The notes beneath the pieces are model-generated. The model was not told the origin of the DNA, searched no databases, and saw nothing but the letters and a program-made list of their open reading frames with translations. Both the position numbers and the translations under genes were made by a program. A stretch of 64,000 bases of DNA from Zanthoxylum bungeanum (lineage: Eukaryota; Streptophyta; Magnoliopsida; Sapindales; Rutaceae), in contig SKCR01035597.1 of NCBI GenBank assembly GCA_019454045.1, positions 17,366-81,365 of the forward strand, written 5' to 3'. Positions within the stretch are counted from its first letter, which is position 1. Each line of letters opens with the position of its first letter. Below, piece after piece: positions 2,481 to 63,919 of the stretch.

Positions 2481-2490
2481 CTAAAACAAA

Positions 2491-2870
2491 ATGCAAAAGA
2501 TTTCTCATGATGACACATATATGTGGCAATTTAGACTTGGTCATATTAGCCTTGACCGGATAGATAGGTTGATAAAGAACATAGCTTTAAACCAGTTAAA
2601 GCATGGAACTTTACCAGTTTACGAATCTGATCTAGAAGGAAAGATGACCAAGATACATTTTACTAGAAAAGGTATAAGAGCCAATCAACAACTTGAGCTA
2701 ATACATTCGGACGTTTACAGACCGATGAATGTAAAATCCCGATGTGGTTATAAATACTTCATCACATTTATTGACGATTATTCTATATATGGGGACGTTC
2801 ACCTAATGCAGCACAAGTCAGATACCTTTGAAAAGTTCAAAGAGTATCGTGCTGAGGTTGAGATTCAATC
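2491..2870 (+). pseudogene. C1 pre-integrase and integrase, 5' half
   Basis: The segment reads as the copia HHCC zinc-binding domain (WQFRLGHISLDR...) followed by the first part of the DDE integrase core. LIHSDV carries the first catalytic Asp and FIDDYS the second. The HHCC Cys pair that normally reads CxxC appears as YESD, so zinc binding is lost. The frame runs without stops to 2870, where the LTR of G1 begins. The rest of the gene resumes at 11719, more than 8.8 kb away. Confidence 0.88.
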
Positions 2871-8400: not shown

Positions 8401-9221
8401 AGAACGTGAAGAGACCTAGCTATAGGAGACATATGCATTCTTTGAGATGTGAAAGCATTATCAGCGAAGAATTCTGATGTATAGTCATTAATGTCATATG
8501 ATATCAATACAACTTAGGTGCGAGAGTGCTTCTTAAATGAGTATTGGTATAATTCCTATATAGATTAAATACTGCTAATGAGGACTAATGATGCAATTGG
8601 AGTAGTTGTAGGTACGACCATATTAGCACGTGTGCATCACATTCGGTCATGACCTTACAAGTTAAGTGTGCTTGGGTGGAAGTAATAATAAGATGAGTCA
8701 CCGTCTATAAAATCTTAAGAAGTATTAGATATTTAAAGAATAGAACGAGATAAAGTAAAGTTCAGTCAAAGAGTATCAGATAGAAAAAAAAAGGTGATTC
8801 ACTTGGGCACCAGTTTGAGAAGGACTTAAGCTCAGACCATAAGAGATTGAGTATATCTAGCACACTCTATGGGATGTCATGAATCGTAAAATAAGAGATA
8901 GATAAATTTTATAGATGATAAGTTATGTGAAGGAATACATATCTGAATAGATAATATATATTATACAGACTTAGTTTCCACACTAGAAAAGGGTTGCTGA
9001 ATGAACTATTAAGGATTAAGCATTCTGCTATAAGAATCGAATAGAGTATATCAAAATAAGAGATTTTCATAAGTCATATTACTTTATTATCAAGCAGAAT
9101 AATAGAAATGAAGTAAGGAGGATAACGACAATAGAGACCAGATGTCTTCAAACCAAGACAGACCTAAGAAGTTCAACATCCTAAGTGATTCGATGACGAA
9201 TCCTATTTAAGGGGGGAGAAT
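5431..9221 (+). pseudogene. G1 interior: heavily decayed gag-pol
   Basis: The 3.8 kb interior has no ORF longer than about 80 codons in any frame and dense stop codons. No gag, RT or integrase motif could be assigned with confidence. The last 60 bases read in parts like the conserved chromovirus polyprotein tail that runs into the polypurine tract. The polypurine tract AAGGGGGGAGAA is at 9209-9220, directly before the 3' LTR. Shared short deletions or large gaps relative to a full element cannot be mapped by eye. Confidence 0.6.
5435..5446 (+). other. G1 primer-binding site
   Basis: TGGTATCTTAGC lies four bases after the LTR end and resembles the tRNA-iMet complement TGGTATCAGAGC with two changes. 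Spacing and motif are those of a plant gypsy/copia PBS. Confidence 0.75.
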
Positions 9222-11718
9222 TGTAATACCCCAGTAATCCCATGACTACTATTTTATGGATGGCATAATACATGATGTAAATCATGTTTAAGCATATATG
9301 TGCTCATCACTCGGCTAATTTCTAGTAGTTCCAATGCGGAATTTAGCTTACATTCCATTCCGAATAGCCCTTAGTATTTATGTTCCACTCTGAAAAACTC
9401 TTAGTATTTGGGGCATAACCTTTTCATACAATCTCTGATTTTTATGAATTTTACATCGTCAGAAATTAAAGATCGAGACCTATAACTTCTGTTTTGAATA
9501 GTTTTTCAAATTCGAACCAGAAATAGGCAAAAAATACAGCTCAAAAATTTGAATGAATAGTACCCAAGGACTAATATAGAGTGTTCTCAAAGTTTCTGAT
9601 TTTTGTTACCATTAAATCATTTTTTCAATCAGCCCCTAATATAAAAAGGAACTACTATTCACTCATCTATAAAAAATAAGAAGAATAAAGAAAACGTGGA
9701 GGAGAGGAAGAAAGAAAAGAGGGAAAGAGGAAGAGAGAAAGCCATTTTCTTGTTTAAATTAAAGAAGAATCAAAACAACCCCGAACAAGCTAGGAAGAGG
9801 AATATCAAGCCTAGAAGACTTGAATTGTGAAGGAAATCAAGTGAGTAAGGTAAGAAGAGACTTGACCCAAATTTTAGTATGTAGATTTTTGATGTTTTGA
9901 TGATTAATGAGTGTTATTTGCTTGAGGTTGACGATGTTTAGATAACTATTGTGTTAAAAAAAATGATGTTGTGATGAACCCTAGACATTGAACTAAATTA
10001 GAGTTTATGGAATTAGAAATTGTGATGATGATAGAAGGTTAAAATTATGATGATTTGAATATGAGTAGTTGATCTAGTTTGTATGAAGATGAAGGTGTTG
10101 GGTTTGCTTTGGGTTATGTCATGGAAGTGTTGATGCTACGCTCTAAAATCGGCTTAGCGTCGCGATGCTCTACACCCCGCGTTGCGACACGTAAGAACCA
10201 GATTCTTTCTGCCATGTGCCTGATTGTGTGAGCGTCGCGACGCTCAACATTTGACGTCTCGAAGCGTAACAAGCAGAGGCTCTACCTCCGGTCTTATCAG
10301 GTGGGCGTCGTGACTCGTAGCATTTGGCATCGCGATGCGAAAAAGAGCATGCTCTCTGCTTGAGTCTGCTTGTGTGGGCATCTTGACGTGCCAGACCCGG
10401 CGTCGTGATGCGAGACATAAACAAATTCATTCCATTTCATAATCATCATAGGAGTTAGAGGGCACCCTAAAGGTTCCGTATACGACATGTATAAGCATCC
10501 ACTACATCCATGATAATGATTAAATTCCTAGTGTAAATATGCTAACCATACTCGAATATAGGACGGATTTGTTTTCCAAAGGGGACTCCACAGTCGAAAC
10601 TAGATATCAAGGGCCATGGAGATTAATCAGTGAGTGAACCTTTTTTTCAAAGTTGATTTTGCTTAATTATTTTGATTCAAGACTTACTTTTCATCACATA
10701 GGACATTAGCCAAATTTATTTCTAGTTTTTTTTATAAATAAGAATGTTTTAGAAAGTTGTGATTTTTAAAGCATGATTTTTTGGTTTTTGGAGGCACGGG
10801 GGAAAATGCCACCTCAGTTGTAACTTGGTACATATATGGAATTGAGGGATTCAGAGAACATGTGCACACGTAGTTCAGGACTAAGGATGACAAATTCCCA
10901 TAGATCCTAGATTTCAGGGCTAGAGGGACTGCGAGACGTAACGCCCCTAGACCCCAGATTCATAGTCGAGATGATAGTATTCATCCGCACATCTGGCTCT
11001 AGTTCAGTGGCTTAGGGATGGCGAGACGTAACGTCCCAAGACCACCAGTTTAGGCGTATTGGGGGACAGCGAGACGTAACACCTTCATACGTCAGGTTTT
11101 TCAGAGACATACATATAGAGACATATTTTTAGAGAAAATATTTTCGGAAACATGGTTTTCAGAGATAATGGGTTTTATGAAAAAGTTTTTAGGAAGAATA
11201 GATTTAAGAAAGAGTTTTGGAAAGAAATCAATTTTACAGAAAACCTCAGAGTTTCACAAATAGAAAATAGTTTTCAGGAAGGATAAATTTAGTGAGATGA
11301 TTTCAGTTTTAGAATACTAAAATTTTTATAAAGATTTTCAGTTTCATTTTTCAATTGTCCACTCACTAGGTTGTGCAAATGATCTAACCCCCCACTCCCA
11401 GTTTCTTTGCTTTGCAGATATACCCGAAGGATAAGCTCGAGAGTATGGATACTGATGGCAGTCACTAAGGTATTGGTTCCACCATGTCAAGTCAAAGATA
11501 GAGTTCAGTCAGAGTCAAATAAATTCATGTATCAAATATTTGTATAATTAATTTTGTATGTGTCATAAGTTATATGTCCATAACATGGGTGTAAAGTGTA
11601 TTGTATTTGAGTATACAGTTATGAATGTCGAAGTACATTTTATGTTGTTGTATTTGAGTATTGTTGATATGGTGGCCTATTCCCTACCGGTTGCATCTTC
11701 GAGGAAGGGGATGTTACA
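9222..11718 (+). repeat. G1 3' LTR
   Basis: The LTR is 2497 bp and matches the 5' LTR from TGTAATACCCC to GATGTTACA. Near its end (about 11650-11680) it lacks roughly 100 bases present in the 5' LTR. The palindromes GCGTCGCGACGC (about 10150-10410) and the GACGGCGAGACGTAAC repeats (about 10925-11080) are retained. Confidence 0.88.
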
Positions 11719-12600
11719 CAATTAGGTAATACGATCAAAATTCTGCGATTGGATCGTGGATGAGAATACCTTGATAGTGATTTCAAGGAATTCTTGGTTG
11801 AGCATAGGATAATAACCCAGCTCACAACACCTGAAACACCACAGCAGAATGGTGTTGCAGATAGGTTAAATTAGACCCTACTAGACTTGATGAGATCTAT
11901 GTTTAGTTACAGTTCATTGCCTAGTTCATTCTGAGGATATGCATTACAAACAACATTTTATATCCTTAATGTAGTTCCATCTAAGTCTATTTCTAAAACT
12001 CCCTTAGAGTTGTGGAGTGGTCGTAAAGCTATTTTAGGACATTTTCGCATATGGGGTGTCCAGCACATGTGCGGAAGAATAAGACTACAAAGTTGGAGCC
12101 ACGTTCTCAGGTGTGCATATTTGTAGGCTATCCTAAGGAGACTATGGGTGGGTTCTCTTATAGTCTGAAAGATAGTAAAGTGTTTGTATCGACAAATGCT
12201 ATTTTTCTTGAGGAGGATTATATGAGGGAGTTTAACCTCGAAGTATTGTGTTATTCGAGGAGTTACTTGCTGGTTCAAACAACACAACATCGTCAATAAT
12301 AGTTGATAAAAACATAGCACCTTCGACATCTGAGCATCAGATGCAAGTATGTTAGAATGATATGCCACCTAGATGCAATGAGAAGGTTGTACGACAACAT
12401 GATCTCTATCTAGGAGTTGGAGAGACACAAGTTGCCACATCCAGTGATGGTGTAAATGATCAATTGACCTATTGTAATGTAATGGATGATTCTGATACAA
12501 AGGAATGGCTAAAATCCATGAACATCGAGATAAAGTCAATGTACTCCAACTCAGTCTGGGAACTTGTAGACCAATTTGATTTGAGTAAAACCCCTAGGTT
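11719..12600 (+). pseudogene. C1 integrase, 3' half, and linker to RT
   Basis: Copia integrase resumes right after the G1 target duplication. It shows the TPQQNGV motif (about 11840), in the region of the catalytic Glu, then PLELWSGRK (about 12001) and the C-terminal GCPAHV and IFVGYPKET motifs (12055-12145). In-frame stops (for example TAG at about 11870) and frame changes break it. The following linker (about 12300-12600) leads into the RT with EWLKSMNIEIKSM (about 12505). Confidence 0.88.
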
Positions 12601-13200
12601 GCAAGTGGATCTATAAGAGAAATATGATAGCATATGGGAAGGTACAGACCTTCAAGGATAGGCTAGTGGCCAAGGGTTATACTCAGAAAGAGAGAGTTGA
12701 CAGTGATGAGACTTTCTCGCCAGTAGCCATGCTAAAATCCATCCGCACTCTCTTTTCCATCGTCGCATATTATGACTATGAGATTTGGCAGATGGACGTC
12801 AAGACTGTATTCTTGAATGAAAATCTTGATGATGTATCTATATGGTACAACCAGAGGGGTTCGTAGCCCAAAGTCAAGAGTAAAAGGTTTGTAAACTGCA
12901 AAGGTCCATTTATCTATTTAAGCAGACATCTCAATCTTGGAACATAAGATTTGGTACCACGATCAAGTTTTATAATTTTAAGAAAAACGTCGATGAGCCT
13001 TGTGTATACAATCGCGTCATTGACATAAATGTGGTTTTTCTCATTTTATACATCGATGATATTTTACTCATTGGAAATGATGTAAAAATATTATCAGACG
13101 TGAAATACTGGCTAGCTAACCAAATCCAAATGAAAGATTTGGGAGAGGCTAGTTATGTACTTGGGATCCAGATTCTTCGGGATCGCAAGAGATGACTATT
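12601..13200 (+). pseudogene. C1 reverse transcriptase
   Basis: Copia RT motifs appear in order: KDRLVAKGYTQ (about 12652), ETFSPVAMLKSIR (about 12708), the QMDVKTVFLN segment with the first catalytic Asp (about 12790), and the YIDD catalytic box (about 13048). LGEASYVLGIQILRDR (about 13140) closes the domain. At least two frameshifts and several stops interrupt it, so no active enzyme is encoded. Confidence 0.9.
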
Positions 13201-13960
13201 AGCTATGTCTCAAGCATCATATATCGACAAGATCCTTGTGTGATTTGGGATGCAGAATTCCAAAAAGGCAATTTACTTTACCGATATGGAATTCATTTGT
13301 CAAATGAACAGTCTCTTAAGACATCTCAAGAAGTCGGGGAAATGAGACATATCCCATATGCCTTAGTAGTTAGTAGTCTCATGTATGCTATGTTATGCAG
13401 TGGGAGTAGTCAGTAGGTATCAGTCTAACCCAGGATTAGATCATTGGGTGGCTGTGAAACATATTCTCAAGTATCTTAAGAGAACGAGAAATTATATGCT
13501 TGTATATTCTGGTGAGTATATAATACTCATGAGGTATACAGACTCTGATTTTCATACAGATATCGATTCTAGGAAATCAACATCTGGATCAGTGTTTACC
13601 CTAGATGGTGGGGCCATTTTATGGAGGAGCATAAAACAATCTTATATTGCCGACTCCACCATGGAGGCTAAATATATAGCAGCTTGCGAAGCAGCTACGG
13701 AAGCAGTCTGGCTCCAAAATTTATTGGGAGATTTGGAAGTTGTTCTAGATATGGATAAACCATTCGCACTTTATTGTGATAATAGTGGTGCAGTGGTGAA
13801 TTCCAAAGAACCAAAAAGCCGCAAAAAGAGAAAACATATAGAGAGAAAATATCATCTCATAATAGAGATAATGCAGATATGAGACATTTATGTCATGAAG
13901 ATTGCATCTGCAGAGAACCTGGCTGATCCATTTACAATGACCTTGTTGATTAAAGTGTTT
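13201..13960 (+). pseudogene. C1 RNase H
   Basis: The longest open stretch (13385-13882, 165 codons) carries copia RNase H motifs: YTDSDF, STSGSVF, the TMEAKY segment with the catalytic Glu, and YCDNSGA. It continues in a broken frame (TGA at about 13880) to the usual C-terminal KxADPFT-like tail. It ends just upstream of the polypurine tract GTGGGAGATT (about 14017-14026). Confidence 0.9.
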
Positions 13961-45679: not shown

Positions 45680-46561
45680 ATGGAGAGTTACCAAAAATCT
45701 CCATTAAAGCCGTGGAAGAAAGGTGCAACAAGAGGCAAAGGTGGTCCTCTCAATGCTTCTTGCCAATACCGAGGAGTTAGGCAAAGAACATGGGGCAAAT
45801 GGGTGGCTGAGATCAGAGAGCCAAAGAAAAGAACTAGACTTTGGTTGGGTTCTTTTGCGACAGCTGAAGAAGCTGCCATGGCTTATGATGAAGCTGCAAG
45901 AAGATTGTTTGGCCCTGATGCTTATCTCAATCTTCCCCATCTTCAGTTGCCTGACTCCATTAACAATAATAATCTTTTAAACGAGTCACACAATAAATTC
46001 AAATGGGTACCTTCGAAGAATTTTTTTTCAATGTTTCCTTCTAGTGGGTTGCTCAATGTAAGTGCTCAACATAGTGTTCATGTTATTGACCAAACGCTAC
46101 AGGATCTTAAGAAAAATGGGGCTTTGATTCAAGCTTCTTCTACAGCTTCATCTTTATGTAGAGGATCAAAAACTGAAGCTCCAAGCATTGGTGGCAAAAC
46201 TCTTGTAGAGGATCTTTCGGTGAAGGAGAAAGAGGTTGAAATTTCATCTGGGAATATGCTGGGGTGTCATGAAGAGAAGAAGCAGATTGATCTGAATGAG
46301 TTTCTGCAGCAACTGGGCATACTGAAAGAAGCGAGTCATGCTGAGGGAACTGATGGGACAGAGTGTTCTGCTTCTGTAGCAGTAGAATCAGAATCGTTAA
46401 TGAAAGATTATGGTGAACTTGACAGGAGTTTCAATTGGGATGCACTTATTGAGAGGCATGAAAATGGCATTGGAGTTCATCAAGGAGCAGAAGCTGGTTG
46501 CTTCCAGCTTTATGAAGTTCAAGAAGAGGAGACATTGCCTACTTCCATTTGGAATTTCTGA
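45680..46561 (+). CDS. DREB2F: DREB2F-like AP2/ERF transcription factor
   Basis: This intron-free gene encodes 293 residues. One AP2/ERF domain spans about residues 28-86, with [19 protein letters not shown] and the [15 protein letters not shown] and LNLP blocks. Val42 and Glu47 sit at domain positions 14 and 19, the pair that marks DREB proteins, which bind DRE/CRT (A/GCCGAC). A basic region precedes the domain ([13 protein letters not shown], residues 10-22). [14 protein letters not shown] (about 108-121) and [15 protein letters not shown] (about 203-217) are motifs I associate with the DREB2F branch of group A-2, as is the short SIWNF-type C-terminus. The AATGG start gives full-length homology. 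Group A-2 factors act in the nucleus in drought, heat and salt responses; the role of this copy is inferred. It looks intact and is the only clear host gene here. Confidence 0.93.
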
Positions 46562-53250: not shown

Positions 53251-53511
53251 TGTTGGGGTTTTGGGCGCAGGCGCGGCGGAAGCGCGGTTCGGGCGAAATT
53301 ATAATTTTAAAGCTTTTTCAAATTACCGAACAAATTATTCAATATCTAATATGAATAATTTATTCATATTTCACCTAAACACATTTATTCGATATCAAAT
53401 AACGACATAAATAAGGTAGAAACTTCACGAAACTTTTACGAAAAATGTTTTTCCGTAAAATGACGCAAAACGTATTTTTGACCGAATCGACCACCCAACA
53501 CTTATAGGGAC
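53251..53511 (-). repeat. C3-family LTR, first part
   Basis: Starts TGTTGGGGTTTTGGG and matches 39429-39680 closely. It is cut at 53511 by element A; the TSD GGGAC is at 53507-53511. It resumes at 63920. Confidence 0.85.
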
Positions 53512-53869
53512 TGATGAGTGGTAATTATATCACTATATCTCACTCATTTAACTTAATATTTTGATAGTTTCTTGAGTTTTGTGATTATTTTGATGTGTTT
53601 TGTGTTATTTTGTAGATAAATAAAGTTTCAGGACTTTCTGGAGGTGATTTGGAGCCAAAACAGTGAAAATTGGACAAAAGGGCATTTTGGTCATTTAGCG
53701 CGTCGCGACGCCTAACATGCAGCAAGACTTGCTAACGTGCGCCGGGTTTACAAGTCAGAATCTGAGAAGTTTGACTTTGCTATCGTGCGCCGTGCCATGT
53801 GTCACCATCACAGCCGGTCTGCTAACGTGCGCCTCATCCTACGGTGCCGACAATCGCCATCACCACGTG

Positions 53870-54160
53870 TTACTCTACGTTCCTGCCACGTCATCATCCA
53901 CATCACTGGTTGACCGAGTCAAAGTGGCACGTCATCATCAACCAATCACAGCGTGCCATGTGTCATAATCTTATGGTGCCGACAATCCCTTTCGCCACGT
54001 GTCGCCACGTCAGCACAATTATTGAATCAAATTATCCGCAATCACCACGTCAGTAGATAAGAATCTCAACCGGCCAATCACGTGTTGACACGTCACCGCA
54101 TCGCGGTGCAGGAACAAACTTGGCGTCGCGACGCGGGGAGCTTATTGGGGCCTATAAATA
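53870..54160 (+). promoter_or_regulatory. Element A LTR promoter: G-box/ABRE cores and TATA box
   Basis: CACGTG occurs at 53874, 53996 and 54079, amid many CCACGTCA/CACGTCA (bZIP TGACG-type) motifs. TATAAATA is at 54153-54160. The 3' LTR has five CACGTG cores (62138, 62219, 62229, 62241, 62445) and TATAAATA at 62519-62526. G-box and CACGTGTC elements are bound by bZIP and bHLH factors in light and ABA responses. That they act here is inference. Confidence 0.6.
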
Positions 54161-54500
54161 GAGCTAGGAATTTCAGTTTCAAATGTACCTTCCTCTCTAA
54201 TTTCTCTGATGTAAATAGGGAGTTTTCTATCTAGTTTCTTTTAATTTCAGTTTTGTAATTAAATTTTAATTACGTTCTGTAATAATAGTAATATACTTTC
54301 TTTACTTTTTACAGTTTTTACTATTCAACCATGATGAGGTAACTTCCCAATGCTAGGGTGAAAAGTAATTTTTTTACTATTCTATTTAGATTAATCTCCC
54401 TTAAAAATAATATATTCACTATTTAAAATTTGACTTAAACTATATTGGTCGGTTGGTAATTCATTTTAAACTGGTTTAAACTAGACTAAGCAAGGATACC

Positions 54501-55487
54501 GCCAGATTGGTCGGTTGGTAATTAAATTTTCTTACCGCCTATATAGCAGGTTATTTTGGTTCCGCCTTTATGGCTGGTTGGAATTAATTTGACTTAATCA
54601 GGTTACCGCCTATATGGCTGGTTGGTAAAATAATCACAAGTTAATATATTATATTAAGAGAGATATCTAAATTAGTAGTTGTAAAAGTTGATCATTTTAC
54701 CTTAGTATTTTATTTTATTGTAATTTACTTTTCAGCTTTTACTTTACTGCATTTACTTTTCAGCATTTTTACTTTATGTCTTTTATTTTACTAGCCCTAG
54801 TTATGTGCTGTAATTAGCCCTAATTACAACCGCCAGATTGGTCGGTTGGTAATTAAATTTTCTTACCGCCTATATAGCAGGTTTATTTTGGTTCCGCTGG
54901 TTGGACTTAATTTCACTTAATCAGGTTACCACCTATATGGCTGGTTGGTAAAATAATCACAAGTTATATATTATATTAAGAGAGATATCTAAATTAGTAG
55001 TTGTAAAAGTTGATCATTTTACCTTAGTATTTTTTTATTGTAATTTACTTTTCAGCTTTTACTTTACTGCATTTACTTTTCAGCTTTTACTTTACTGCAT
55101 TTACTTTTCAGCATTTTTACTTTATGTCTTTTATTTTACTAGCCCTAGTTATGTGCTGTAATTAGCCCTAATTACCAACCGCCAGATTGGTCGGTTGGTA
55201 ATTAAATTTTCTTACCGCCTATATAGCAGGTTATTTTGGTTCCGCTGGTTGGACTTAATTTCACTTAATCAGGTTACCACCTATATGGCTGGTTGGTAAA
55301 ATAATCACAAGTTAATATATTATATTAAGAGAGATATCTAAATTAGTAGTTGTAAAAGTTGATCATTTTACCTTAGTATTTTATTTTATTGTAATTTACT
55401 TTTCAGCTTTTACTTTACTGCATTTACTTTTCAGCATTTTTACTTTATGTCTTTTATTTTACTAGCCCTAGTTATGTGCTGTAACTA
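54501..55487 (+). repeat. Three-copy array in element A 5' LTR
   Basis: Units begin GCCAGATTGGTCGGTTGGTA at 54501, 54832 and 55181 (periods 331 and 349) and end CCTAGTTATGTGCTGTAA. Units differ by small indels. Inside each are shorter ACCGCCTATAT(G/A)GC repeats. Confidence 0.9.
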
Positions 55488-56157
55488 AATTAGTTAGCTA
55501 GGGTTGTGATGAATTCTAATATCACCGGTTTATAAGGGGTTATTTTATATTTTGGGTAATTTAAAGGTTTACTTATTAAGTCTTAAGCTTAATGCGTCTT
55601 CTTAATTGGCCACTAATAAGATAGATCTGGTATATCTAAATTAAACTTGACAAAGGAATTTTAGGTTTCAGCCTTAGACTTAATAGCCCACGATTTTCCT
55701 TGAGTATAGCTAATCCTTTAATAGATTTCCTTACAGGATAGACATATGGTTAACATAGACATATGGTTCAATTGGGTTAAACTGGGTATTTGCGTCTGAC
55801 GATCGACATAGTTTTTCGCATAATTTCGTGTTCCAGGTTAGTAAACCGATAAATTACACAAACATAAAATAACCACTTCATCTTTAAAATGATATTGGAA
55901 GAAATCACAACCCTAGATAGTTTTTAATATTGAATTTTCTTAAACCTACTTTCGAACAATTTTATTTACTTGTTTTTAAATTTAAAATCTTCACCATTTT
56001 AAATCAATCAATCAACCTGTTAGATACTAGTAATCATTTGACCTCATAAAATTAATAGATTAGGCATTAAGTCCTCGTGGGAATGATACTTTTTATACTA
56101 CTTGTACGATACGTGCGCTTGCGTTATACGCGTGTGTGTAAGCACCAGTCAAGTTTT

Positions 56158-56175
56158 TGGCGCCGTTGCCGGGGA
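56158..56175 (+). other. Element A primer-binding site
   Basis: TGGCGCCGTTGCCGGGGA, complementary to the 3' end of plant tRNA-Asp, is the standard Athila PBS. It starts seven bases after the LTR end. Confidence 0.93.
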
Positions 56176-56248: not shown

Positions 56249-56268
56249 GTTGTTTTCTTTTGTTTCAG
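56249..56268 (+). promoter_or_regulatory. Splice-acceptor-like site before gag
   Basis: A pyrimidine-rich tract TGTTTTCTTTTGTTTCAG ends at 56268, 15 bases before the first gag ATG. It resembles a 3' splice site; use is not shown by sequence alone. Confidence 0.4.
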
Positions 56269-56283
56269 GTTCTCAGAAACTTC

Positions 56284-57446
56284 ATGAGACGAACCAGAAG
56301 CTTTGAACTCCGACCGCTTGACCCAGAAATTGAAAGAACCATCAGACAATTGAGAAGGGAAATGTGAGAAGGCCAATAAGCTTTAGTCAACATGGACCAT
56401 GAACCTTTGGAAGTTGCACCACCAATACCCATTTGAGACAGAACCATTCCTGTGGTTGACAGACTCATTTCTTGTATTATACTTCCTCCATTACCAGCAA
56501 ATGCGGGAGACATCAAAACATGCATACAAATGATTCAGCAGTCAGTGTAGTTTGGGGGAAAGCAACTGAAGATCCTAATACCCACATCAGCAACTTCCTG
56601 GAAGTTTGCGGCACTTTCAATTACAACCGAGAAGTTGAAGAAGCAATGAGACTGCGTTTTTTTCCATACTCCTTGAAAGACAGAGCTAAAGCTTGACTAC
56701 ATTCACTACCAGCAGGTTCCATCACAACTTGGAACACTTTAGCCACCAAATTTCTTGCAAAGTACTTTCCATCAGCCAGAATTGGAAAGCTGAGGAATGA
56801 CATCACATCCTTTGTACAACAAGACTTGGAAACTCTCTACGAAGCTTGGGAAAGGTACAAAGATTTGCTCCGGAAATGTCCTCACCATGAGATTCCAAAA
56901 TGGCTTCAAGTCCAAACTTTCAATAATGGACCTTCTGGACTGATGAGAACCACAATCGATGCTGCTGCTGGAGGAGCTTTAATGGAAAAATGAGAAGATC
57001 AAGCCTGGGACCTAATCGAAGAAATGGCCAACAACAATTCCTTGTGGCCAACAGAAAGGAGCATGATCCAAAGAATTGCAGGAATTTATGAAAGTGGAGC
57101 CAATACAGCAGTCAACGCCAAGCTGGATCAGATATTCAAATTCATGGAGACTCTTACCACTGGATCCACAAATTCACCATATGGAGGAGCACCAGAGCCG
57201 AACCAACTTGAAAAGACGGTGAATTTTGTCAACAATTTCAATAGACAGGGGAACAATCCATATTCCAACACCTACAACCCAGGGTGGAGGAATCATCCTA
57301 ATTTTTCATGGAGCAACAATTCAGGGCAAAAGAAAAATCCACCACCTGGATTCCAACAGCATAACTATCCACCACCTGGATTCCAGCAACAGAACAACGG
57401 ACATGAGCAGGCAAATGAACCAGGAATAACAGAAGTGCTGACTTAG
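56284..57446 (+). pseudogene. Element A gag
   Basis: Starts ATGAGACGAACC, but stops follow within 30 codons and a frameshift lies at about 56550. The Retrotrans_gag core is clear: DPNTHISNFLEVC (about 56573), the LP..SI.TW..L...F...FP segment (about 56700-56770), and YEAWERYKDLLRKCPHH (about 56838). The last 140 codons (57024-57446) are open, with the Athila-type NTYNPGWRNHPNFSW stretch and two PPPGFQQ repeats. It would have formed the capsid; now it cannot give one protein. Confidence 0.92.
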
Positions 57447-58420
57447 TTAAAAAAGTACGATGCTATGTTTCAGAGCCAATCTGCTTCCATAAAAGTAATG
57501 GAGAATCAAATCGGATAACTGGCAAATGCTCAGAGTTACAGACCGCCAGGGAATCTTCCCAGCAACACAGAACCAAATCCAAGGAACATAGGGAATGAGC
57601 AGTGTCATGCCATAATGTTAAAAAGTGGTACTGAAATCAACAAAGATGTTGGAGCCAAAACAACTGCTGAGGAAGTTCGAAAAGAAACAAAGCAACAGAT
57701 GGAGGAAAAAGAAGCAAAGGAAAAAAAACAGATCACTCCACCTCCACCTTTTCCTCAGCGTCTTCGGAAAAAAAACTGGACAAACAGTTTGCTCGATTCC
57801 TGGAGGTGTTCAAAAGCTTCACATCAACATTCCATTTGCAGAAGCCTTGGAACAAATGCCCAGCTATGTAAAATTCATGAAAGACATTCTTTCACGAAAA
57901 CAGAGATTGGGAGATTACGAGACAGTAGCATTGACGGAAGAATACAGTGCTATCATTCAAGGGAAGCTTCCCCCAAAGTTGAAAGATCCTGGCAGTTTTA
58001 CCATTCCATGCATCATAGGAGAACATAACTTTGGTAAGACGTTATGTGATTTAGGTGCAAGTGTTAACTTGATGCTTTTTTCTATTTTCAGGAAACTGCA
58101 GATTGGAGAAACAATGCCCACTTTAGTCTCTCTACAACTTGCTGATAGAACGCTCATATTTCCAAGAGGCGTAGTTGAGGATGTGCTGGTCAAGGTTGAC
58201 AAATTCATTTTCCCAGCAGATTTTATTGTCCTTGATATGGAGGAAGACGCGGACGTGCCAATCATCCTCGGGAGACCATTCTTGGCTACAGGACAAACCA
58301 TTATTGATGTATAAAAAGGAGAATTAACCATGAGGGTACATGACCAAGAAGTAACATTCAATGTTTTCAAGGCCATGAATTTCCCATAAGATGAAAAGAA
58401 GGAGGAATGTTTCAGACTTG
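57447..58420 (+). pseudogene. Element A protease region
   Basis: A linker with stops is followed by an open stretch (57625-58314, 229 codons; about 57770 shows a likely frame change). The retropepsin motif CDLGASVNLM has its catalytic Asp at about 58047. LADRT and IILGRPFLAT (about 58262), the second conserved protease block, follow. A TAA at 58312 replaces the codon after IIDV, and the text then continues as the usual KGELTMRV linker to about 58400. RT should follow but does not. Confidence 0.9.
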
Positions 58421-58923
58421 ATGTGATACATAGTACCATTCAGAACTCCAATGCAATGCAAAGTTCTATTGACAAACTTAAAACATGTCAATTGCCTGTG
58501 GAGCCTGAAGATAAAGCATCTTTTGCACTGAAAAAGCCAATTCTTGCACTACAAGCAACAAAAGAGAAAAATTTCCACCAGCTCAACGAATTGGAGGAAT
58601 TTCACAATCAGCCTTTTAAGGATGCCAAATTGTACAAAGAAAAGGCAAGGAAAAGACATGATGAGAAGTTAGTATGCATACAACTGGAACCATAACGAAA
58701 TGTACCGTTAAACAAATCAAGGGTGAAATTATTCCCATGGAAGCCAAAATCACGGTGGTCAGGTCTATTTGTGATCACCAAGGTTTTACCAGATAGATCC
58801 GTTGAGATACGTGATCCTGACTCCAACAAAACATTCAAGGTTAAAAACAAGTGTGTCAAGCACTACTGGGGAGAATCATTTGAGCGACAAAAAGAAAATG
58901 TCACACTTTCAGATCCAGCTTAA
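58421..58923 (+). pseudogene. Element A integrase C-terminal remnant fused to protease linker
   Basis: Near 58530 the protease linker passes straight into integrase C-terminal text: QLNELEEF (about 58579), YKEKARKRHDEK, and after a TAA at 58693 the KLFPWKPKSRWSGLF and VEIRDPDSNKTFKV blocks, ending KHYWGE. The entire RT, RNase H and integrase catalytic core between them is missing, an internal deletion of roughly 2.5-3 kb if compared with a typical Athila pol. Confidence 0.88.
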
Positions 58924-58961
58924 CGTTCGAGAAGTCACATCTAGCTGACGACGTTAAACTT

Positions 58962-58985
58962 AGCGCTCGCAGGGAGGCAACCCAT
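58962..58985 (+). other. Athila post-pol signature
   Basis: GCGCTCGCAGGGAGGCAACC follows the pol stop. A sequence of this type (AGCGCT..TGGGAGGCAACCCA) is a hallmark just downstream of pol in Athila-like elements. Confidence 0.8.
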
Positions 58986-59028
58986 GCAATTTGTGTATAT
59001 ATTGTGATCTGGTGTATTTTATTTTTGT

Positions 59029-59045
59029 GCGTTTAATTTTTGCAG
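59029..59045 (+). promoter_or_regulatory. Splice-acceptor-like site before the 182-aa ORF
   Basis: GCGTTTAATTTTTGCAG ends at 59045, 16 bases before the ATG. It resembles a 3' splice site and could yield a spliced subgenomic mRNA. Confidence 0.4.
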
Positions 59046-59061
59046 GTAAAGTCATATCACG

Positions 59062-59610
59062 ATGGAAGAAGCTCTCGCAAATCTTCGCAAGCAATTTCCT
59101 TTTCTCCCTAAAAAATCTCTGATGAAAGTCTACAAAGTTCGCTTGGAATGGATGAGGTTACTGATGATCAAAGGTATTCCTACTGACATTCGTTGGACTA
59201 TTGAAGCACGGGTCCGATTGGCAGGTGAGTCTTCAGACTCTTTTATTTCACATCTGTCTGGTTTAAGAAGGAGTACCTATGCTAAAAAGAGAAGAGCCAA
59301 AAGAATGTGTGTTTGTTATAAATGTGCTCGTATGTTTTGTGATACTCGTTGTCGTTCTTTAGGAATGGTGTCTGATAACCGCGAAGATAAGATTAATTTC
59401 ATTAAGGATGGCTTGAGTAAGGAGTCTTTGGATGATATATCTAAAACTCTTGAGACGCATCCCAATGGATATGTGTATCACGAAATTCGTGTGTTATATG
59501 CACAATTTCCAAAAGAAAGACAACAATTAAGTCTTGGGAATCTGACTCAAAAAGACCCATTTTACCAATTTATAAGAAAATTGGATGGGAAGCTTGTCCC
59601 TGACGCATAG
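59062..59610 (+). CDS. 182-aa ORF of unknown function in element A
   Basis: I do not recognise this protein. It is open from ATG to TAG with no interruption, unlike gag and pol beside it. A basic patch KKRRAKR (residues 75-81) looks like a nuclear localisation signal. It is followed at once by a Cys cluster, Cys83, 85, 88, 93 and 97 (CVCYKC and CDTRC), which could bind zinc. The C-terminal half is hydrophilic, with FIKDGLSKESLDDISKTL and RVLYAQFPKERQQL. No signal peptide or membrane span is apparent, which argues against a classical Env. It sits 138 bases after the pol remnant and 250 before the LOG copy, in the same orientation. It could be a captured host gene fragment or an old Athila accessory ORF. 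Confidence 0.75.
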   Translation: MEEALANLRKQFPFLPKKSLMKVYKVRLEWMRLLMIKGIPTDIRWTIEARVRLAGESSDSFISHLSGLRRSTYAKKRRAKRMCVCYKCARMFCDTRCRSLGMVSDNREDKINFIKDGLSKESLDDISKTLETHPNGYVYHEIRVLYAQFPKERQQLSLGNLTQKDPFYQFIRKLDGKLVPDA

Positions 59611-59860
59611 ACGTCAATCAAGCCGCTACTTTTCTTATACATATTATATCTCTTTGTATTTTCCTAATAATTGTGATTTGTTTTGTTGTTTTCTTTTATT
59701 TTCTCCGACAGGATCTAGACCTTTTTGACTATCACGATTTATTTTACTATTAACTAATAATTATCATTTGGCACGTACTAGTGCTATTATTTTACTAACC
59801 CTTTTCAGGTGTTATAAATTCAACTCATCATTGCACTTTAGAAGACATCCAGAGTAAAAC
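59611..59860. other. Spacer between the two accessory ORFs
   Basis: AT-rich, no ORF. It ends with TACTAAC (59793-59799) and CCCTTTTCAG (59799-59808): a branch-point-like and acceptor-like pair 52 bases upstream of the LOG ATG. Confidence 0.55.
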
Positions 59861-60523
59861 ATGGAAGCCACTTCAAGAAGACGAGTTGAAAACATATGTG
59901 TGTTTTACGGTACTAGTGTTGGTACTAAGCCACAATACGTAGAAGCAGCACATGAATTGGGTCGAGTCTTAGCTGCAAGGAATATGCACTTAGTATATGG
60001 CGGAGGCAATCTTGGACTAATGGGGATCGTTTCAAAGGCCGTACATGAAGGAGGCAGTCACGTTTTGGGAATCATCCCAAAACTTTTGGTGGAGGAAAAT
60101 CTTATAGGACAATCAAATGGAGAGGAAATGATTGTGCCAGGTATGTCTGAATGATTGGTAGAAATGATTAACCGTGCTGATGCTTTTATTGCTTTGCCAG
60201 GTGGCTTGGGTATATTTGAGGAAAGTTTTACAGTGTTATCTTGGGCGAACCTGAACATACACCAGAAACCGCTTGGACTATACAACGTTGAAGGATTTTA
60301 TGATTTTCTTTGTGTGTTTTTTGATGATGCTCAGAGAAATGGGTTCGTGTCAAAACATATGAAAGAACTTATATTTACTGCCAGAACTGCTCCGGATCTA
60401 ATTGACCAAATCTTATCTCCGGATCTATATGAACCACAAATTGACCCTATCCTTTCAAATATAAATTGGTCTGAGGATGATCGTGGTAAGAGGCCCCGGA
60501 TTAATCTAGATCTTAACCTTTAA
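59861..60523 (+). pseudogene. LOG: LOG-family cytokinin phosphoribohydrolase homologue with one stop
   Basis: LOG enzymes release active cytokinin bases from their riboside 5'-monophosphates in the cytosol and nucleus. This copy spans 220 codons, the family's usual length, without introns. Residues 12-19 (ICVFYGTS), 44-55 (LVYGGGNLGLMG), HVLGIIPK (about 67-74), ADAFIALPGG (106-115), a GIHDKP-like NIHQKP (132-137) and NVEGFYD follow the family order. The only break is TGA at 60152-60154 (codon 98). In alignment it occupies the conserved Arg of MHxRK; neighbours His and Lys read Ser and Leu. PGGxGTxxE reads PGGLGIFEE. The tail GKRPRINLDLNL ends in an EAR-like LxLxL. Host LOG genes have several introns, so a spliced mRNA was probably captured. 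Cytokinin activity is unlikely as written. Family identity is secure; the branch of LOG is not resolved. Confidence 0.93.
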
Positions 60524-60585
60524 CTTTTCGCGTAGAATTTAAGTTAACCAGGTACTATCTTCCAAGCTCTTCTTCTATTATTTAA

Positions 60586-60621
60586 GACATTGGGGACAAT
60601 GTCTCATTTAGGTTTGGGGGA
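60586..60621 (+). other. Conserved Athila hairpin and purine tract after the accessory ORFs
   Basis: GACATTGGGGACAATGTC (60586-60603) is a perfect 7-bp inverted repeat with a 4-base loop. GGTTTGGGGGAG (60610-60621) follows. Such a GACAATGTC...TTTGGGGG block is a common feature of Athila 3' regions and may be a secondary polypurine tract. Confidence 0.65.
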
Positions 60622-61054
60622 GGGAATTAATTGATCAGTATCTTGTTTTTAGTTGTGTTTTTTTTTTTTTTTTTTTGGCCAATTTTTTTTCGAAAAATAC
60701 AAAAAAAATTGAAATTTTTTCAACAATTACAAAAATATTTTACGTTTTTTTTTTTATTTTGACTAAAAAGGTGAAATTGGTAAGAGATAGCTGTGTAAGG
60801 AATTTCCACTCCTGAGACGTATGTCAAACCATTTTTTGAAACAAGTTAATTTTTGTTTATTTCATTTTAAATTATTTAATTTGTAAATTCTCCATAAAAC
60901 TGAATAAAATGGATCTTCAAATGCTCAGTTGGCAGATATTTTCAACATGCATGGTAACATACGGACATGAGCTAAAATTGAAAATTTTGTAATATTCAGT
61001 GCTCTAGTTTAATTGGAGGAAGCATCTCAAAAAGTGATAGAGTAAAAAGAAAAC

Positions 61055-61291
61055 GTCTGAGATCCGAGTTATTAAGTCCGTATGGGTGTTTTAACACTTA
61101 GTGCCCTAAAACCAACTGGTTTGGGAGTCACTGGCCCAAAGCTCGCTACATAGATCAAAGATGCTACAAAAATATATATATCTGAAATCTGAGTAATTAA
61201 GTCCGTAGGGGTGTCTTAACATCTGATGCCCTAAAGCCAACTTGTTTGGGAGCCACCGACCCAACACTCGCTACATAGATGAAAGATATTG
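61055..61291 (+). repeat. Two 112-bp direct repeats
   Basis: 61055-61167 and 61181-61291 share TTAAGTCCGTA, GTGCCCTAAA/ATGCCCTAAA, TTTGGGAG and CTCGCTACATAGAT in the same order, spaced about 126 bp apart and diverged by roughly 15-20%. Confidence 0.85.
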
Positions 61292-61841
61292 TATATAAAT
61301 AAAAAAAAATCCAAGAAAAAAATCAGAAAAATCAGAAAAATTATTCCATTGCTACAAAAAGGTGTGAATTCTGATAAAACTTTAGGAAAAAAATAATACT
61401 CTCTTATCAACTGCACTTGTGACTGTTGTGAGCAAAAATGAGTTGATTTATATTTTGTCGGCTGTGCATATGGAGAATGGTAAATATAATCGGAGAATTT
61501 ACTTATTCGGTAATTTAGAAAGAAAGAAAACAACTAGTAACTTGTAGTAGAAGTTTCACCTGAATAGTCACTAATTTCTTTATTCTCTTTTCTCTTGTCT
61601 TTTTGCTTTTGTGTGCATTAGTTTCACTACCTTTTTACTTTTGTAATATGTTTGTGGGTATCATTGCTGTAAACCCTCACGAGACTACAACTTGTCCACT
61701 AGGGACACCTAGGGGTTTAAAGACTTGTTGCATACGCTAAATGCAACCATGATCCCTACGAAAGTGGCTTAGTTAAATTTCATTTTAAAGATATTTATGT
61801 TATTTTATTCTCTGTTTTGCTCGAGGACTAGCAAAAAGTTA

Positions 61842-61852
61842 GGTTTGGGGTG
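61842..61852 (+). other. Element A polypurine tract
   Basis: GGTTTGGGGTG lies directly before the 3' LTR start TGATGAG (61853), as expected for plus-strand priming. Confidence 0.75.
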
Positions 61853-63914
61853 TGATGAGTGGTAATTATATCACTATTTCCCACTCATTTAACATAATAT
61901 TTTGTATAATTTCTTGAGTTTTGTGAATATTTTGATGTGTTTTGTGTTATTTTGTAGATAAATAAAGTTTAAGGACTCTCTGGAGGGGATTTGGAGCCAA
62001 AACAGTGAAAATTGGACAAAAGGGCATTTTGGCCATTTGGGGCTTCGCGACGCCTATCATGCAGCAAGACTTACTAACGTGCACCGGGTCCACAAGTCAG
62101 AATCTGAGAAGTTTGACTTTGCTAACGTGCGCCGTGCCACGTGTCACCATCACAACTGGTCTGCTAACGTGCGCTGTGCCATGTGTCATCATCCTACTGT
62201 GCCGACAATCGCCATCACCACGTGTTGCCACGTGTCACTCCACGTGTCTGCCATGTCATCATCCACATCACCGGTTGATCGAGTCAAAGTGCCACATCAT
62301 CGCCACGTCATCATCAACCAATCACAGCATGCCACATGTCACAATCTTATGGTGCCGACAATCCCTTTCACCACGTCAGCATAATTATTGAATCAAATTA
62401 TCCGCAATCGCCACTTCAGTAGATAAGAATCTGAACCGGCCAATCACGTGTTGATACGTCACCGCGTCGCGACGCAAGAACAATCTTGGCGTCGCGACGT
62501 GGGGAGATTATTGGGGCCTATAAATAGAGCTCGAAATTTCAGTTTCAGATGTATCTTCCTCTCTAATTTCTCTGATGTAAATATGGAGTTTTCTATCTAG
62601 TTTCTTTTAATTTAAGTTTTGTAATTAAATTTTAATTACGTTCTGTAATAATAGTAATTTACTTTCTTTACTTTTTACAGTTTTTACTATTCAACCATGA
62701 AGAGGTAACTTCCCCCCGCTAGAGTGAAATGTAATTATTTTACTATTGCTATTTAGATTAATCTCCCTTAAATATAATATATTCAATATTTAAAATTTGA
62801 CTTAAAAAGCATACCGCCATATTCGTCGGTTGGTAATTCATTTTAAACTGGTTTAAACCTGACTAAGCAAGGATACCGCCAGATTGGTCGGTTGGTAATT
62901 AAATTTTCTTACCGCCTATATGGAAGGTTTATTTTGGTTCCTCCTTTATGGCTGGTTGGACTTAATTTGACTTAATCAGGTTAACCACTATATGGCTGGT
63001 TGGTAAAATAATCATAAGTTTATATATTATATTAAGGGAGATATCTAAATTAGTAGTAGTAAAAGTTGATCCTTTTACCTTAGTATTTTATTTTATTGTA
63101 ATTTACTTTTCAACTTTTACTTTACCGCATTTACTTTTCAGCATTTTTACTTTATGTCTTTTATTTTACTAGCCCTAGTTATGTGTTGTAACTAAATTAG
63201 TTATCTAGGGTTGTGATGAATTCTAATATCACTGGTTTATAAGGGGTTATTTTATAGTTTGGGTAATTTAAAGGTTACTTATTAAGTCTTAAGCTTAATG
63301 CGTCTTATTAATTGGCCACTAATAAGATAGATCTGGTAAATCTAAAATAAACTTGACATAGGAATTTTAGGTTTCAACCTTAGACTTAATAGCCCACGAT
63401 CTTCCTTGAGGATAGATAACCCTTTAATAAATTTCCTTACAGGATAGACATATACCTGTCGGGCGGGGGTAGCCATAATTGGAACTTAAACTTAATAAAT
63501 CCAGGTAATTTGGTTGACATAGACATATGGTTCAATTGGGTTAAACTGGGTATTTGCATCTGACCATCGAAAGAGGTTTTCACATAATTTCGTGTTCCAG
63601 GTTAGTAAACCGATAAATTACACAAACATAAAATAACCACTTCATCTTTAAAATGATATTGGAAGAAATCACAACCCTAGATAGTTTTTAATATTGAATT
63701 TTCTTAAACCTACTTTCGAACAATTTTATTTGCTTGTTTTAAATTTAAAATCTTCACCATTTAAAATCAATCAATCAACCTATTAGATACTAGTAATCAT
63801 TTGACCTCATAAAATTAATAGATTAGTTATTAAGTCATCGTGGGATCGTTATTTTTTATTCTACTTGAACGATACGTGCGCTTGCGTTATACACGTGTGT
63901 GTAAGCACCGGTCA
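61853..63914 (+). repeat. Element A 3' LTR
   Basis: The LTR is 2062 bp, colinear with the 5' LTR but with one copy of the array unit (about 62880-63200). It has five CACGTG cores and TATAAATA at 62519-62526. It carries one small block absent from the 5' LTR (about 63450-63515, CCTGTCGGGCGGGGGTAGCC). Confidence 0.92.
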
Positions 63915-63919
63915 AGGAC

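What the first reader, a model, noticed from the sequence alone, without database searches (positions are those of the whole stretch)
59861..60523. A LONELY GUY cytokinin-activation gene carried inside an Athila-like retrotransposon
Between the pol remnant and the 3' LTR of element A lies an intronless, sense-oriented LOG homologue of normal family length. Two LTRs with a matching TSD (GGGAC/AGGAC) enclose it, so it belongs to the element; it is not a host gene the element landed beside. Host LOG genes are multi-exon, so an mRNA was probably captured. It sits where Athila elements carry an env-like ORF. Capture of a hormone-activating gene by an LTR retrotransposon would give a mobile, LTR-driven effector of cytokinin level. 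I do not know of a described Athila family with LOG, but I could not search.
Basis: partly seen in the sequence, partly recalled or inferred. Interest (0 to 1): 0.92.

Follow-up and report, generated by a model that had tools for sequence, protein, structure and literature searches.

The report
Retrotransposon carrying a captured LOG gene
A family of jumping genes in a plant genome carries, in thousands of copies, an old captured version of the enzyme that plants use to activate the hormone cytokinin, next to a gene resembling one from plant RNA viruses; the copy in this window is broken, but the family has kept the catalytic residues while changing residues thought to recognise the hormone.

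Summary
The LOG homologue is real, intronless, sense-oriented and inside the element, but this copy is dead: an in-frame stop after codon 97 and an altered PGGxGTxxE motif.

It is a standing element gene, not a one-off. The same genome (3.96 Gb) holds 12,863 exact copies of the element LOG's 24-base 3' end, against 26 of a host-type LOG motif. Of 20 NABP-selected copies, 19 carry LOG ~250 bp downstream. Host LOG exons in this genome have introns where the element has none. LOG shows purifying selection (dN/dS 0.34 in NABP-selected copies) and persists in two pol-deleted classes. Gene models join LOG to NABP or pol in Orobanche, Citrus and Acer.

Most interesting: 86 of 97 homologues keep both catalytic residues, but 82 of those 86 lost two residues of the proposed prenyl pocket (Lys100, Glu125), and 81 of 97 end in LxLxL. 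So a simple "cytokinin effector" is doubtful.

LOG (YgdH) in Ty3/gypsy elements of Citrus and Populus is already in print; the paired ORF, pocket loss and tail I did not find described.

The parts
53507..53511 (.). 5' target-site duplication GGGAC
53512..56151 (+). 5' LTR (TG...CA), with an internal duplication at 54829-55161
   Evidence: self-comparison; K = 0.0585 against the 3' LTR, ~2.2 My at an assumed 1.3e-8 per site and year
56158..56175 (+). primer binding site TGGCGCCGTTGCCGGGGA (tRNA-Asp type by recall)
   Evidence: same site with 0-2 mismatches in 15 of 20 other copies
56265..57446 (+). gag remnant, broken by stops
   Evidence: the corresponding ORF of relative L015 (589-1605) hits Retrotrans_gag
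57625..58314 (+). protease-region ORF
   Evidence: no Pfam hit in the window copy; relatives in other copies; RVP_2 sub-threshold in L015
58445..58480 (+). junction of the pol deletion (RT, RNase H and most of integrase missing)
   Evidence: deletion ends at 2800-2827 and 5476-5547 of L015 in the 8 class B copies (the window included); no RT match
58480..58923 (+). integrase C-terminal remnant
59028..59045 (+). 3' splice-site-like sequence before the NABP ORF
   Evidence: TTTTTGCAG in 10 of 10 rows aligned; splicing itself not tested
59062..59610 (+). intact 182-codon ORF, carlavirus-type zinc-finger (Viral_NABP / Carla_C4)
59793..59808 (+). branch-site-like, polypyrimidine and AG, 3' splice-site-like, before LOG
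   Evidence: AG kept in 36 of 37 readable rows (lost in L038), of classes A, B and C; splicing itself not tested
59861..60523 (+). LOG homologue, broken by an in-frame stop at 60152-60154
60488..60520 (+). C-terminal tail, basic residues plus LxLxL (EAR-like by recall)
   Evidence: predicted disordered in the family model
60524..61852 (+). 3' untranslated region with a repeated ~107-bp unit (61056-61162, 61181-61287) and polypurine tract next to the LTR
   Evidence: matched downstream of LOG in 20 of 20 copies, in L016 only in part
61853..63914 (+). 3' LTR
63915..63919 (.). 3' target-site duplication AGGAC

Best explanation
A non-chromovirus, probably Athila-like, Ty3/gypsy lineage captured a spliced host LOG mRNA, most likely once and long ago, and kept it as an accessory gene between a second accessory ORF (carlavirus-type zinc finger, NABP) and the 3' UTR. 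Shown: the position, multiplicity, lack of introns, linkage to NABP, purifying selection, presence in pol-less classes, catalytic pair kept, proposed prenyl-pocket residues lost, widespread basic-LxLxL tail. Inferred: NABP and LOG are made from spliced subgenomic mRNAs using the acceptor-like sites before each ATG; the LOG protein is still a phosphoribohydrolase of a nucleotide 5'-monophosphate but with a shifted substrate, acting for the element (possibly in the nucleus) rather than as an ordinary cytokinin activator. The window's own copy makes no working LOG; any function there would have to come from other copies in trans.
For: Multiplicity: 12,863 exact hits of the 24-base LOG 3' end, reversed control 0, against 26 hits of a host LOG motif, control 0; 150 of 150 scored LOG domains over the Pfam cut-off, 3 of 150 with an inner stop (the best-scoring 150 of 47,331 first-look candidates). 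Position: LOG as one alignment without intron-like breaks in 20 of 20 fetched loci, though in 3 it ends at residue 201-208 of 217 and stops may lie within; 3' UTR downstream in 20 of 20 and 3' LTR in 18 of 20; NABP-selected copies have LOG ~250 bp downstream in 19 of 20. Capture of mRNA: host exons end near positions 69, 79, 113 and 137 of the AtLOG3 query. Selection: dN/dS of LOG 0.34 (CI 0.26-0.42) in 19 NABP-selected copies; in pol-deleted class B 0.30 (0.23-0.41) against 0.55 (0.38-0.83) for the IN remnant of the same 8 copies; in class C, without pol and NABP, 0.25 (0.18-0.32) (classes B and C are LOG-selected samples apart from the window). Depth: gene models NABP+LOG in Orobanche gracilis, RT+integrase+LOG in Citrus sinensis, NABP (70% identical to an Acer NABP)+LOG in Acer yangbiense; one clade, 98/94, apart from AtLOG3/AtLOG8. 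Fold: AlphaFold2 pLDDT 84.6 for P0121, best PDB match AtLOG3, TM 0.94 by target. Residues: Arg99 in 87 and Glu122 in 95 of 97 homologues, Lys100 in 4 and Glu125 in 4 of 97; 38 of 47 own-genome copies have the catalytic pair and all 38 have His97, Lys100 and Glu125 changed; roles of residues from PMC4979012 (passages).
Against: Most copies decay: only 2 of 20 NABP-selected copies have a single full-length stop-free LOG match, and dN/dS of the closest fifth of pairs is 0.45 in NABP-selected and 0.43 in all copies (0.28 in LOG-selected). The intervals for LOG and the IN remnant in class B overlap slightly. Copies carrying the window's stop exist in numbers: 13 of the first 100 listed of 2,858 matches at that site, and 5 of 7 nearest copies, so LOG is dispensable for a given copy. 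Prenyl-pocket roles were inferred by the authors from structure superposition, and M. marinum LOG, which differs there too, is thought to make another cytokinin type; so pocket change does not prove a shift. Two Citrus models lost Glu122 and one Acer model lost Arg99, so those may not be catalytic at all. Only two host plant LOGs and two bacterial LOGs were in the tree, and the genomic context of most of its rows is unknown. No expression, splicing or activity data.
Confidence: 0.6

Rival explanations
1. The captured LOG is still a cytokinin activator: it raises active cytokinin in cells where the element is transcribed, favouring dividing or meristematic states in which new copies reach the germ line.
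For: LOG fold, Arg99 and Glu122 kept in 86 of 97 homologues, dN/dS well under 1. Four of 97 family members, P0250 of Acer and two Xanthoceras models keep the whole canonical pocket.
Against: 82 of the 86 with the catalytic pair have lost both Lys100 and Glu125, and all 38 such copies of this genome have lost His97 too. The window copy is broken.
Confidence: 0.2
2. The LOG fold is now mainly a carrier for the C-terminal basic-LxLxL tail: a nuclear protein that recruits TOPLESS-type co-repressors or decoys them from silencing of the element.
For: LxLxL in the last 22 residues of 81 of 97 homologues and basic-plus-alternating pattern in 89 of 97; tail kept in 17 of 17 NABP-selected copies readable there although PGGxGTxEE is kept in 12 of the 17; two Citrus models keep the tail while losing Glu122; tail predicted disordered.
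Against: Within this genome the last 8 codons are not unusual: 58 of 210 eight-codon windows are as conserved or more. EAR and its TOPLESS partner are named from recall; no binding test. The catalytic pair would not need to be kept in 86 of 97.
Confidence: 0.15
3. Passive passenger: LOG was transduced once and only rides along.
For: The window copy and many others are dead, and copies sharing the window's stop are numerous.
Against: dN/dS 0.25-0.34, lower than the IN remnant in the same copies; presence in pol-less classes; related LOGs of 217 aa in 72 of 120 listed relatives, from several named plants.
Confidence: 0.08
4. A host gene beside or inside which an element landed.
For: None beyond the LOG homology itself.
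Against: Same surroundings in 20 of 20 loci, thousands of copies, no introns, host LOGs separate and multi-exon.
Confidence: 0.01

Closest known systems
Ty3/gypsy elements with a YgdH (LOG-family) domain in Citrus sinensis, C. clementina and Populus trichocarpa (PMC9289625, citing Steinbauerova et al. 2011, Genetica 139:1543)
   Same: LOG-family ORF inside plant Ty3/gypsy elements; my Citrus sinensis model P0247 joins RT, integrase and LOG.
   Different: The passages I read report the domain only; they say nothing of NABP, active-site changes, tail, non-autonomous derivatives or selection. Steinbauerova 2011 itself is not held, so it may say more.
Athila lineage (OTA, non-chromovirus Ty3/gypsy; PMC6317226, passages)
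   Same: Gypsy domain order, accessory ORFs between pol and the 3' LTR, PBS of tRNA-Asp type (by recall).
   Different: No Athila ORF-1 domain (PF03078) in the eight L015/L018/L019 ORFs scanned; ORFs of 182 and 217 codons fall under that survey's 250-codon cut-off for extra ORFs.
Plant LOG cytokinin riboside 5'-monophosphate phosphoribohydrolases (AtLOG3, AtLOG8)
   Same: Fold and catalytic pair.
   Different: No introns, His97/Lys100/Glu125 replaced in most members, basic-LxLxL tail, element-borne.
Carlavirus / mandarivirus cysteine-rich nucleic-acid-binding proteins
   Same: Viral_NABP and Carla_C4 profiles reached by 22 and 21 of 25 family members at E <= 0.01. Mandarivirus CRPs are pathogenicity determinants and one suppresses silencing (PMC12172455, abstract).
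   Different: Match covers only the basic-zinc-finger part; AlphaFold model of the whole is poor (pLDDT 54); function in the element unknown.
Orchid Ty3/gypsy elements with a captured m6A RNA demethylase (PMC9289625, passages)
   Same: Gypsy element with a retained host-derived nucleotide/RNA-modifying enzyme.
   Different: Other enzyme, other element family; there activity was shown in vitro.

Membership tests
LTR retrotransposon | two LTRs with TG...CA ends, PBS, polypurine tract, target-site duplication | tested here: met
   TSD 4 of 5 bases; polypurine tract read by eye
LTR retrotransposon | own reverse transcriptase (autonomous) | tested here: not met
   window copy lacks ~2.65 kb of pol and has no RT match; relatives L013, L015, L018 have RT and integrase. 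Window copy is a non-autonomous derivative.
Ty3/gypsy | PR-RT-RH-IN order | tested here: met
   in relative L018: RVT_1, RT_RNaseH, then rve
Athila lineage | RT/RH/IN phylogeny | not tested
   no named reference RT set at hand
Athila lineage | tRNA-Asp type PBS | tested here: inconclusive
   site found; its tRNA type and link to Athila are from recall
Athila lineage | Athila ORF-1 domain (only 16% of Athila elements, PMC6317226) | tested here: not met
   no PF03078 in eight ORFs of L015, L018, L019
type-I LOG | LOG fold | tested here: met
   family member P0121
type-I LOG | PGGxGTxxE motif and catalytic Arg99/Glu122 | tested here: met
   family: Arg99 and Glu122 in 86 of 97. Window copy itself: not met (stop and altered motif)
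cytokinin-activating plant LOG | prenyl-pocket residues His97, Lys100, Glu125 | tested here: not met
   kept in 18, 4 and 4 of 97
cytokinin-activating plant LOG | phosphoribohydrolase activity on cytokinin riboside monophosphates | not testable with these tools
   needs an enzyme assay
LOG/YgdH-bearing Ty3/gypsy (Citrus, Populus) | LOG ORF inside a gypsy element and same LOG clade | tested here: met
   Citrus and Populus LOGs fall in the same clade; Citrus model has RT and integrase; context of the Populus rows not seen
Carla_C4 / Viral_NABP | profile match over the curated cut-off with the cysteine cluster | tested here: met
   window ORF 28.6 and 23.5 bits against 23 and 20.9; three cysteines invariant in 25 members
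EAR repression motif | LxLxL and binding to TOPLESS | tested here: inconclusive
   motif in 81 of 97; binding not testable here

The most novel reading that the evidence does not exclude
A eudicot retroelement lineage carries a two-gene accessory module, like a retrovirus: a viral-type zinc-finger protein (silencing suppressor or RNA chaperone) and a captured LOG that lost its cytokinin pocket, kept its nucleotide-cleaving site, and gained a nuclear, co-repressor-binding tail. The module works on host nucleotide signalling or silencing, has been kept since before the split of the rosid and asterid hosts (or spread between them), and is also carried by pol-less parasitic derivatives, of which one kind has LOG without NABP.
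Probability: 0.25. Interest if true: 0.92.

Novelty: new variant of a known kind. Interest (0 to 1): 0.74.

Why it matters
Most accessory ORFs of plant retrotransposons have no known origin or job. Here one has a clear origin (a hormone enzyme), a clear change (catalytic pair kept, proposed hormone pocket replaced), measurable selection and a frequent partner gene with a plant-virus relative. That makes the question 'why do plant LTR elements keep extra genes?' testable with a single enzyme assay and a localisation test. It also warns annotators: 'LOGL10'-type gene models in plant genomes can belong to this clade and should not be counted as host cytokinin genes without checking.

Tried and rejected
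Host gene next to an insertion: rejected by collinear copies. Passenger: disfavoured by dN/dS. Looking for plant-element contigs in IMG/VR with the NABP protein and with alignment A1 found no relatives. The NABP AlphaFold model was too poor for a fold search. The tail as an unusually conserved segment inside this genome: not supported. The window's stop as a marker of one subfamily: it is in 5 of 7 nearest copies and 0 of 38 other copies readable there, but 13 of the first 100 listed exact matches genome-wide carry it, so recurrent mutation is also possible. Copy counts may include alternative haplotypes of one site (L033 and L035 have identical LOGs). LOG-selected samples are biased to good LOGs, so selection is quoted first from NABP-selected copies (20 that I chose from the 150 listed; 19 entered the dN/dS count). 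I did not identify the species. A count of PBS sites was asked twice and not answered.

Full report
WHAT IS THERE. The LOG homologue lies at 59861-60523 (+). Its two halves hit LDcluster4 and Lysine_decarbox. The frame is broken by a TGA at 60152-60154, and the PGGxGTxxE motif is altered. It is enclosed by LTRs 53512-56151 and 61853-63914, with a PBS at 56158-56175 and a 5-bp target-site duplication matching at 4 of 5 bases. LTR divergence is K = 0.0585, about 2.2 My at an assumed 1.3e-8 per site and year. Pol is a remnant: relative to L015 about 2.65 kb holding RT and most of IN is missing, and an RT query finds nothing in the element.

A SECOND ACCESSORY GENE. At 59062-59610 lies an intact 182-codon ORF that passes the Pfam cut-offs of Viral_NABP (28.6 bits, cut-off 23) and Carla_C4 (23.5, cut-off 20.9). 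A protein search gave 348 relatives at E <= 0.01, 120 listed, 88 of these 180-186 aa long, among them named proteins of Xanthoceras, Populus, Acer, Orobanche and Rhamnella. Of 25 members scanned, 22 hit Viral_NABP and 21 Carla_C4 at E <= 0.01. Its AlphaFold model is poor, so I draw nothing from structure.

COPIES IN THE SAME GENOME. The assembly has 3.96 Gb in 51,709 contigs. An exact 24-base pattern of the element LOG's 3' end occurs 12,863 times (6,393 + 6,470), reversed control 0; a host-type LOG motif occurs 26 times, control 0. I fetched 20 of the 150 listed LOG hits with 10-kb surroundings (one cut at a contig end). LOG is one alignment without intron-like breaks in 20 of 20, in 3 of them reaching only residue 201-208 of 217; the window's 3' UTR follows in 20 of 20 (in L016 in part) and its 3' LTR in 18 of 20; the PBS is present with at most 2 mismatches in 15 of 20. 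By content (L020-L028 read in the sense direction): class A with RT and integrase (L013, L015, L018) or integrase and the end of RT (L016); class B, pol-deleted with NABP and LOG (L010, L011, L012, L014, L020, L022, L026 and the window), whose deletion ends lie at 2800-2827 and 5476-5547 of L015 in all 8 (the class is defined by this gap); class C without RT, integrase or NABP matches inside the element (L009, L017, L019, L021, L023, L027), with LOG and, in L017, L019, L021 and L023, another ORF bearing a zinc-knuckle-like stretch (L027 shows the start of the same ORF); three unclassified (L024, L025, L028). The IN remnant of class B is only 46-59% identical to L018's integrase, while LOG and NABP are far more alike, so classes A and B may be mosaics rather than simple parent and deletion product. 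One class C copy, L019, has LTRs differing by K = 0.0077, about 0.3 My at the assumed rate, and an open 217-codon LOG.

LINKAGE IN COPIES NOT CHOSEN BY LOG. Of 20 copies chosen from 150 NABP hits, 19 carry LOG about 250 bp downstream; only 2 of 20 have a single full-length stop-free LOG match.

ORIGIN. In three host LOG loci of this genome (of the 26 motif places) the match to AtLOG3 breaks near query positions 69, 79, 113 and 137; the element LOG is continuous across them. So an mRNA was captured. In a tree of 44 sequences the 40 LOGs of this family form one clade (98/94) apart from AtLOG3 and AtLOG8; host sampling is thin and the genomic context of most rows is unknown. A search that admitted only long proteins returned 45 hits. 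Seventeen are from Xanthoceras (4), Orobanche (4), Acer (4) and Citrus (5). Among them: NABP+LOG in Orobanche gracilis (two), RVT_1+integrase+LOG in Citrus sinensis, Carla_C4 (20.5 bits, just under the cut-off 20.9)+LOG in Citrus x changshan-huyou, and a stretch 70% identical to an Acer NABP, lacking the zinc finger, +LOG in Acer yangbiense. Against this, two Citrus sinensis models fuse LOG to non-element domains (LRR; BED) and one Orobanche model to a Copia gag, so such models also contain annotation accidents. The other 28 hits (unnamed or algal) were not used.

SELECTION. Nei-Gojobori dN/dS (codon bootstrap): LOG 0.34 (0.26-0.42) in 19 NABP-selected copies and 0.26 (0.20-0.33) in 20 LOG-selected copies. 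In class B: LOG 0.30 (0.23-0.41), protease 0.28 (0.18-0.41), NABP 0.39 (0.28-0.56), IN remnant 0.55 (0.38-0.83). In class A: LOG 0.19 (0.11-0.30). In class C: LOG 0.25 (0.18-0.32). Close pairs give higher values in the NABP-selected and pooled sets (0.45, 0.43), as expected from decay after insertion. The window's stop is in 5 of 7 nearest copies and 0 of 38 others readable there, and in 13 of the first 100 listed of 2,858 exact matches at that site.

ACTIVE SITE AND TAIL. PMC4979012 (passages) proposes Arg99 and Glu122 as catalytic and Met96, His97, Lys100, Glu125 and Trp129 as prenyl pocket, the latter inferred by superposition. In 97 family homologues of 205-260 aa (of 120 listed) Arg99 is kept in 87, Glu122 in 95 and Trp129 in 96, but His97 in 18, Lys100 in 4 and Glu125 in 4. 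Of the 86 with both catalytic residues, 82 have lost Lys100 and Glu125; in this genome 38 of 47 copies have the pair and all 38 have lost His97, Lys100 and Glu125. P0250 of Acer and two Xanthoceras models keep the canonical set, as does P0164; the Acer/Xanthoceras group (95/59) is sister to the other 36, and P0164 branches next. This suggests capture as an ordinary LOG and later loss of the pocket. Two Citrus models lost Glu122 and one Acer model lost Arg99. LxLxL is in the last 22 residues of 81 of 97 and a basic-plus-alternating pattern in 89 of 97; the tail is predicted disordered. Matches of AtLOG3 and AtLOG8 to the family end before the tail. Inside this genome the tail is not unusually conserved (58 of 210 windows as conserved or more).

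EXPRESSION. Upstream of both ATGs lie 3' splice-site-like sequences: before NABP in 10 of 10 rows aligned, before LOG with AG kept in 36 of 37 readable rows across classes A to C. Spliced subgenomic mRNAs, as in retroviruses, are the likely route; this is inference.

WHAT IS KNOWN. PMC9289625 (passages) reports a YgdH domain in Ty3/gypsy elements of two Citrus species and, with a looser filter, Populus trichocarpa, in line with Steinbauerova et al. 2011 (not held). PMC6317226 (passages) counted only extra ORFs of 250 codons or more, so both ORFs here fall below its limit. In-text term searches for LOG-type words found none in PMC7264820, PMC11963269, PMC11728184 and PMC13317346 (the terms differed between papers, and the three hits of 'log' in PMC11963269 are other words). 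Library searches 'Viral_NABP + retrotransposon' (0 papers), 'YgdH + retrotransposon' (1 paper), 'LONELY GUY + retrotransposon + Athila' (1 paper), and those (listings only, top rows) showed no description of the NABP-LOG pair, the pocket change or the tail; the library holds open-licence papers only.

VERDICT. Real, element-borne, old and selected; the window copy is dead; the hormone-effector reading is weakened by the active site; the kind (LOG in gypsy elements) is known, the variant appears new.

Noticed in passing
   Followed up: yes
L009, L017, L019, L021, L023, L027: Derivatives without RT, integrase or NABP matches inside the element that keep LOG; in L017, L019, L021 and L023 an unrelated ORF shows a zinc-knuckle-like C-x2-C-x3-H-x4-C stretch (no Pfam hit in L019).
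   Followed up: partly
58480-58923 and class B copies L010-L026: The integrase remnant of class B is only about 46-59% identical to the integrase of class A copy L018 although LOG, NABP and 3' UTR are much more alike; possible mosaic origin by recombination.
   Followed up: no
58960-58990 and same site in other copies: Sequence AGGGAGGCAACCCA just before NABP is almost invariant in the 10 rows aligned; role unknown.
   Followed up: no
45680-46561: Open ORF with an AP2 domain (PF00847), a likely host ERF/DREB-type gene.
   Followed up: partly
1256-13882: Broken Copia-type pol pieces (Pol_BBD at 1256-1996; RNase H-like letters at 13385-13882 without a Pfam hit).
   Followed up: no
L025 (G000:C45283:54116-64115): Tandem duplication of a ~3.5-kb LOG-to-LTR unit (98.5% alike).
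   Followed up: no
P0258 (Orobanche gracilis): Gene model joining LOG to a Copia-type gag (PF14223); nested insertion or annotation artefact.
   Followed up: no
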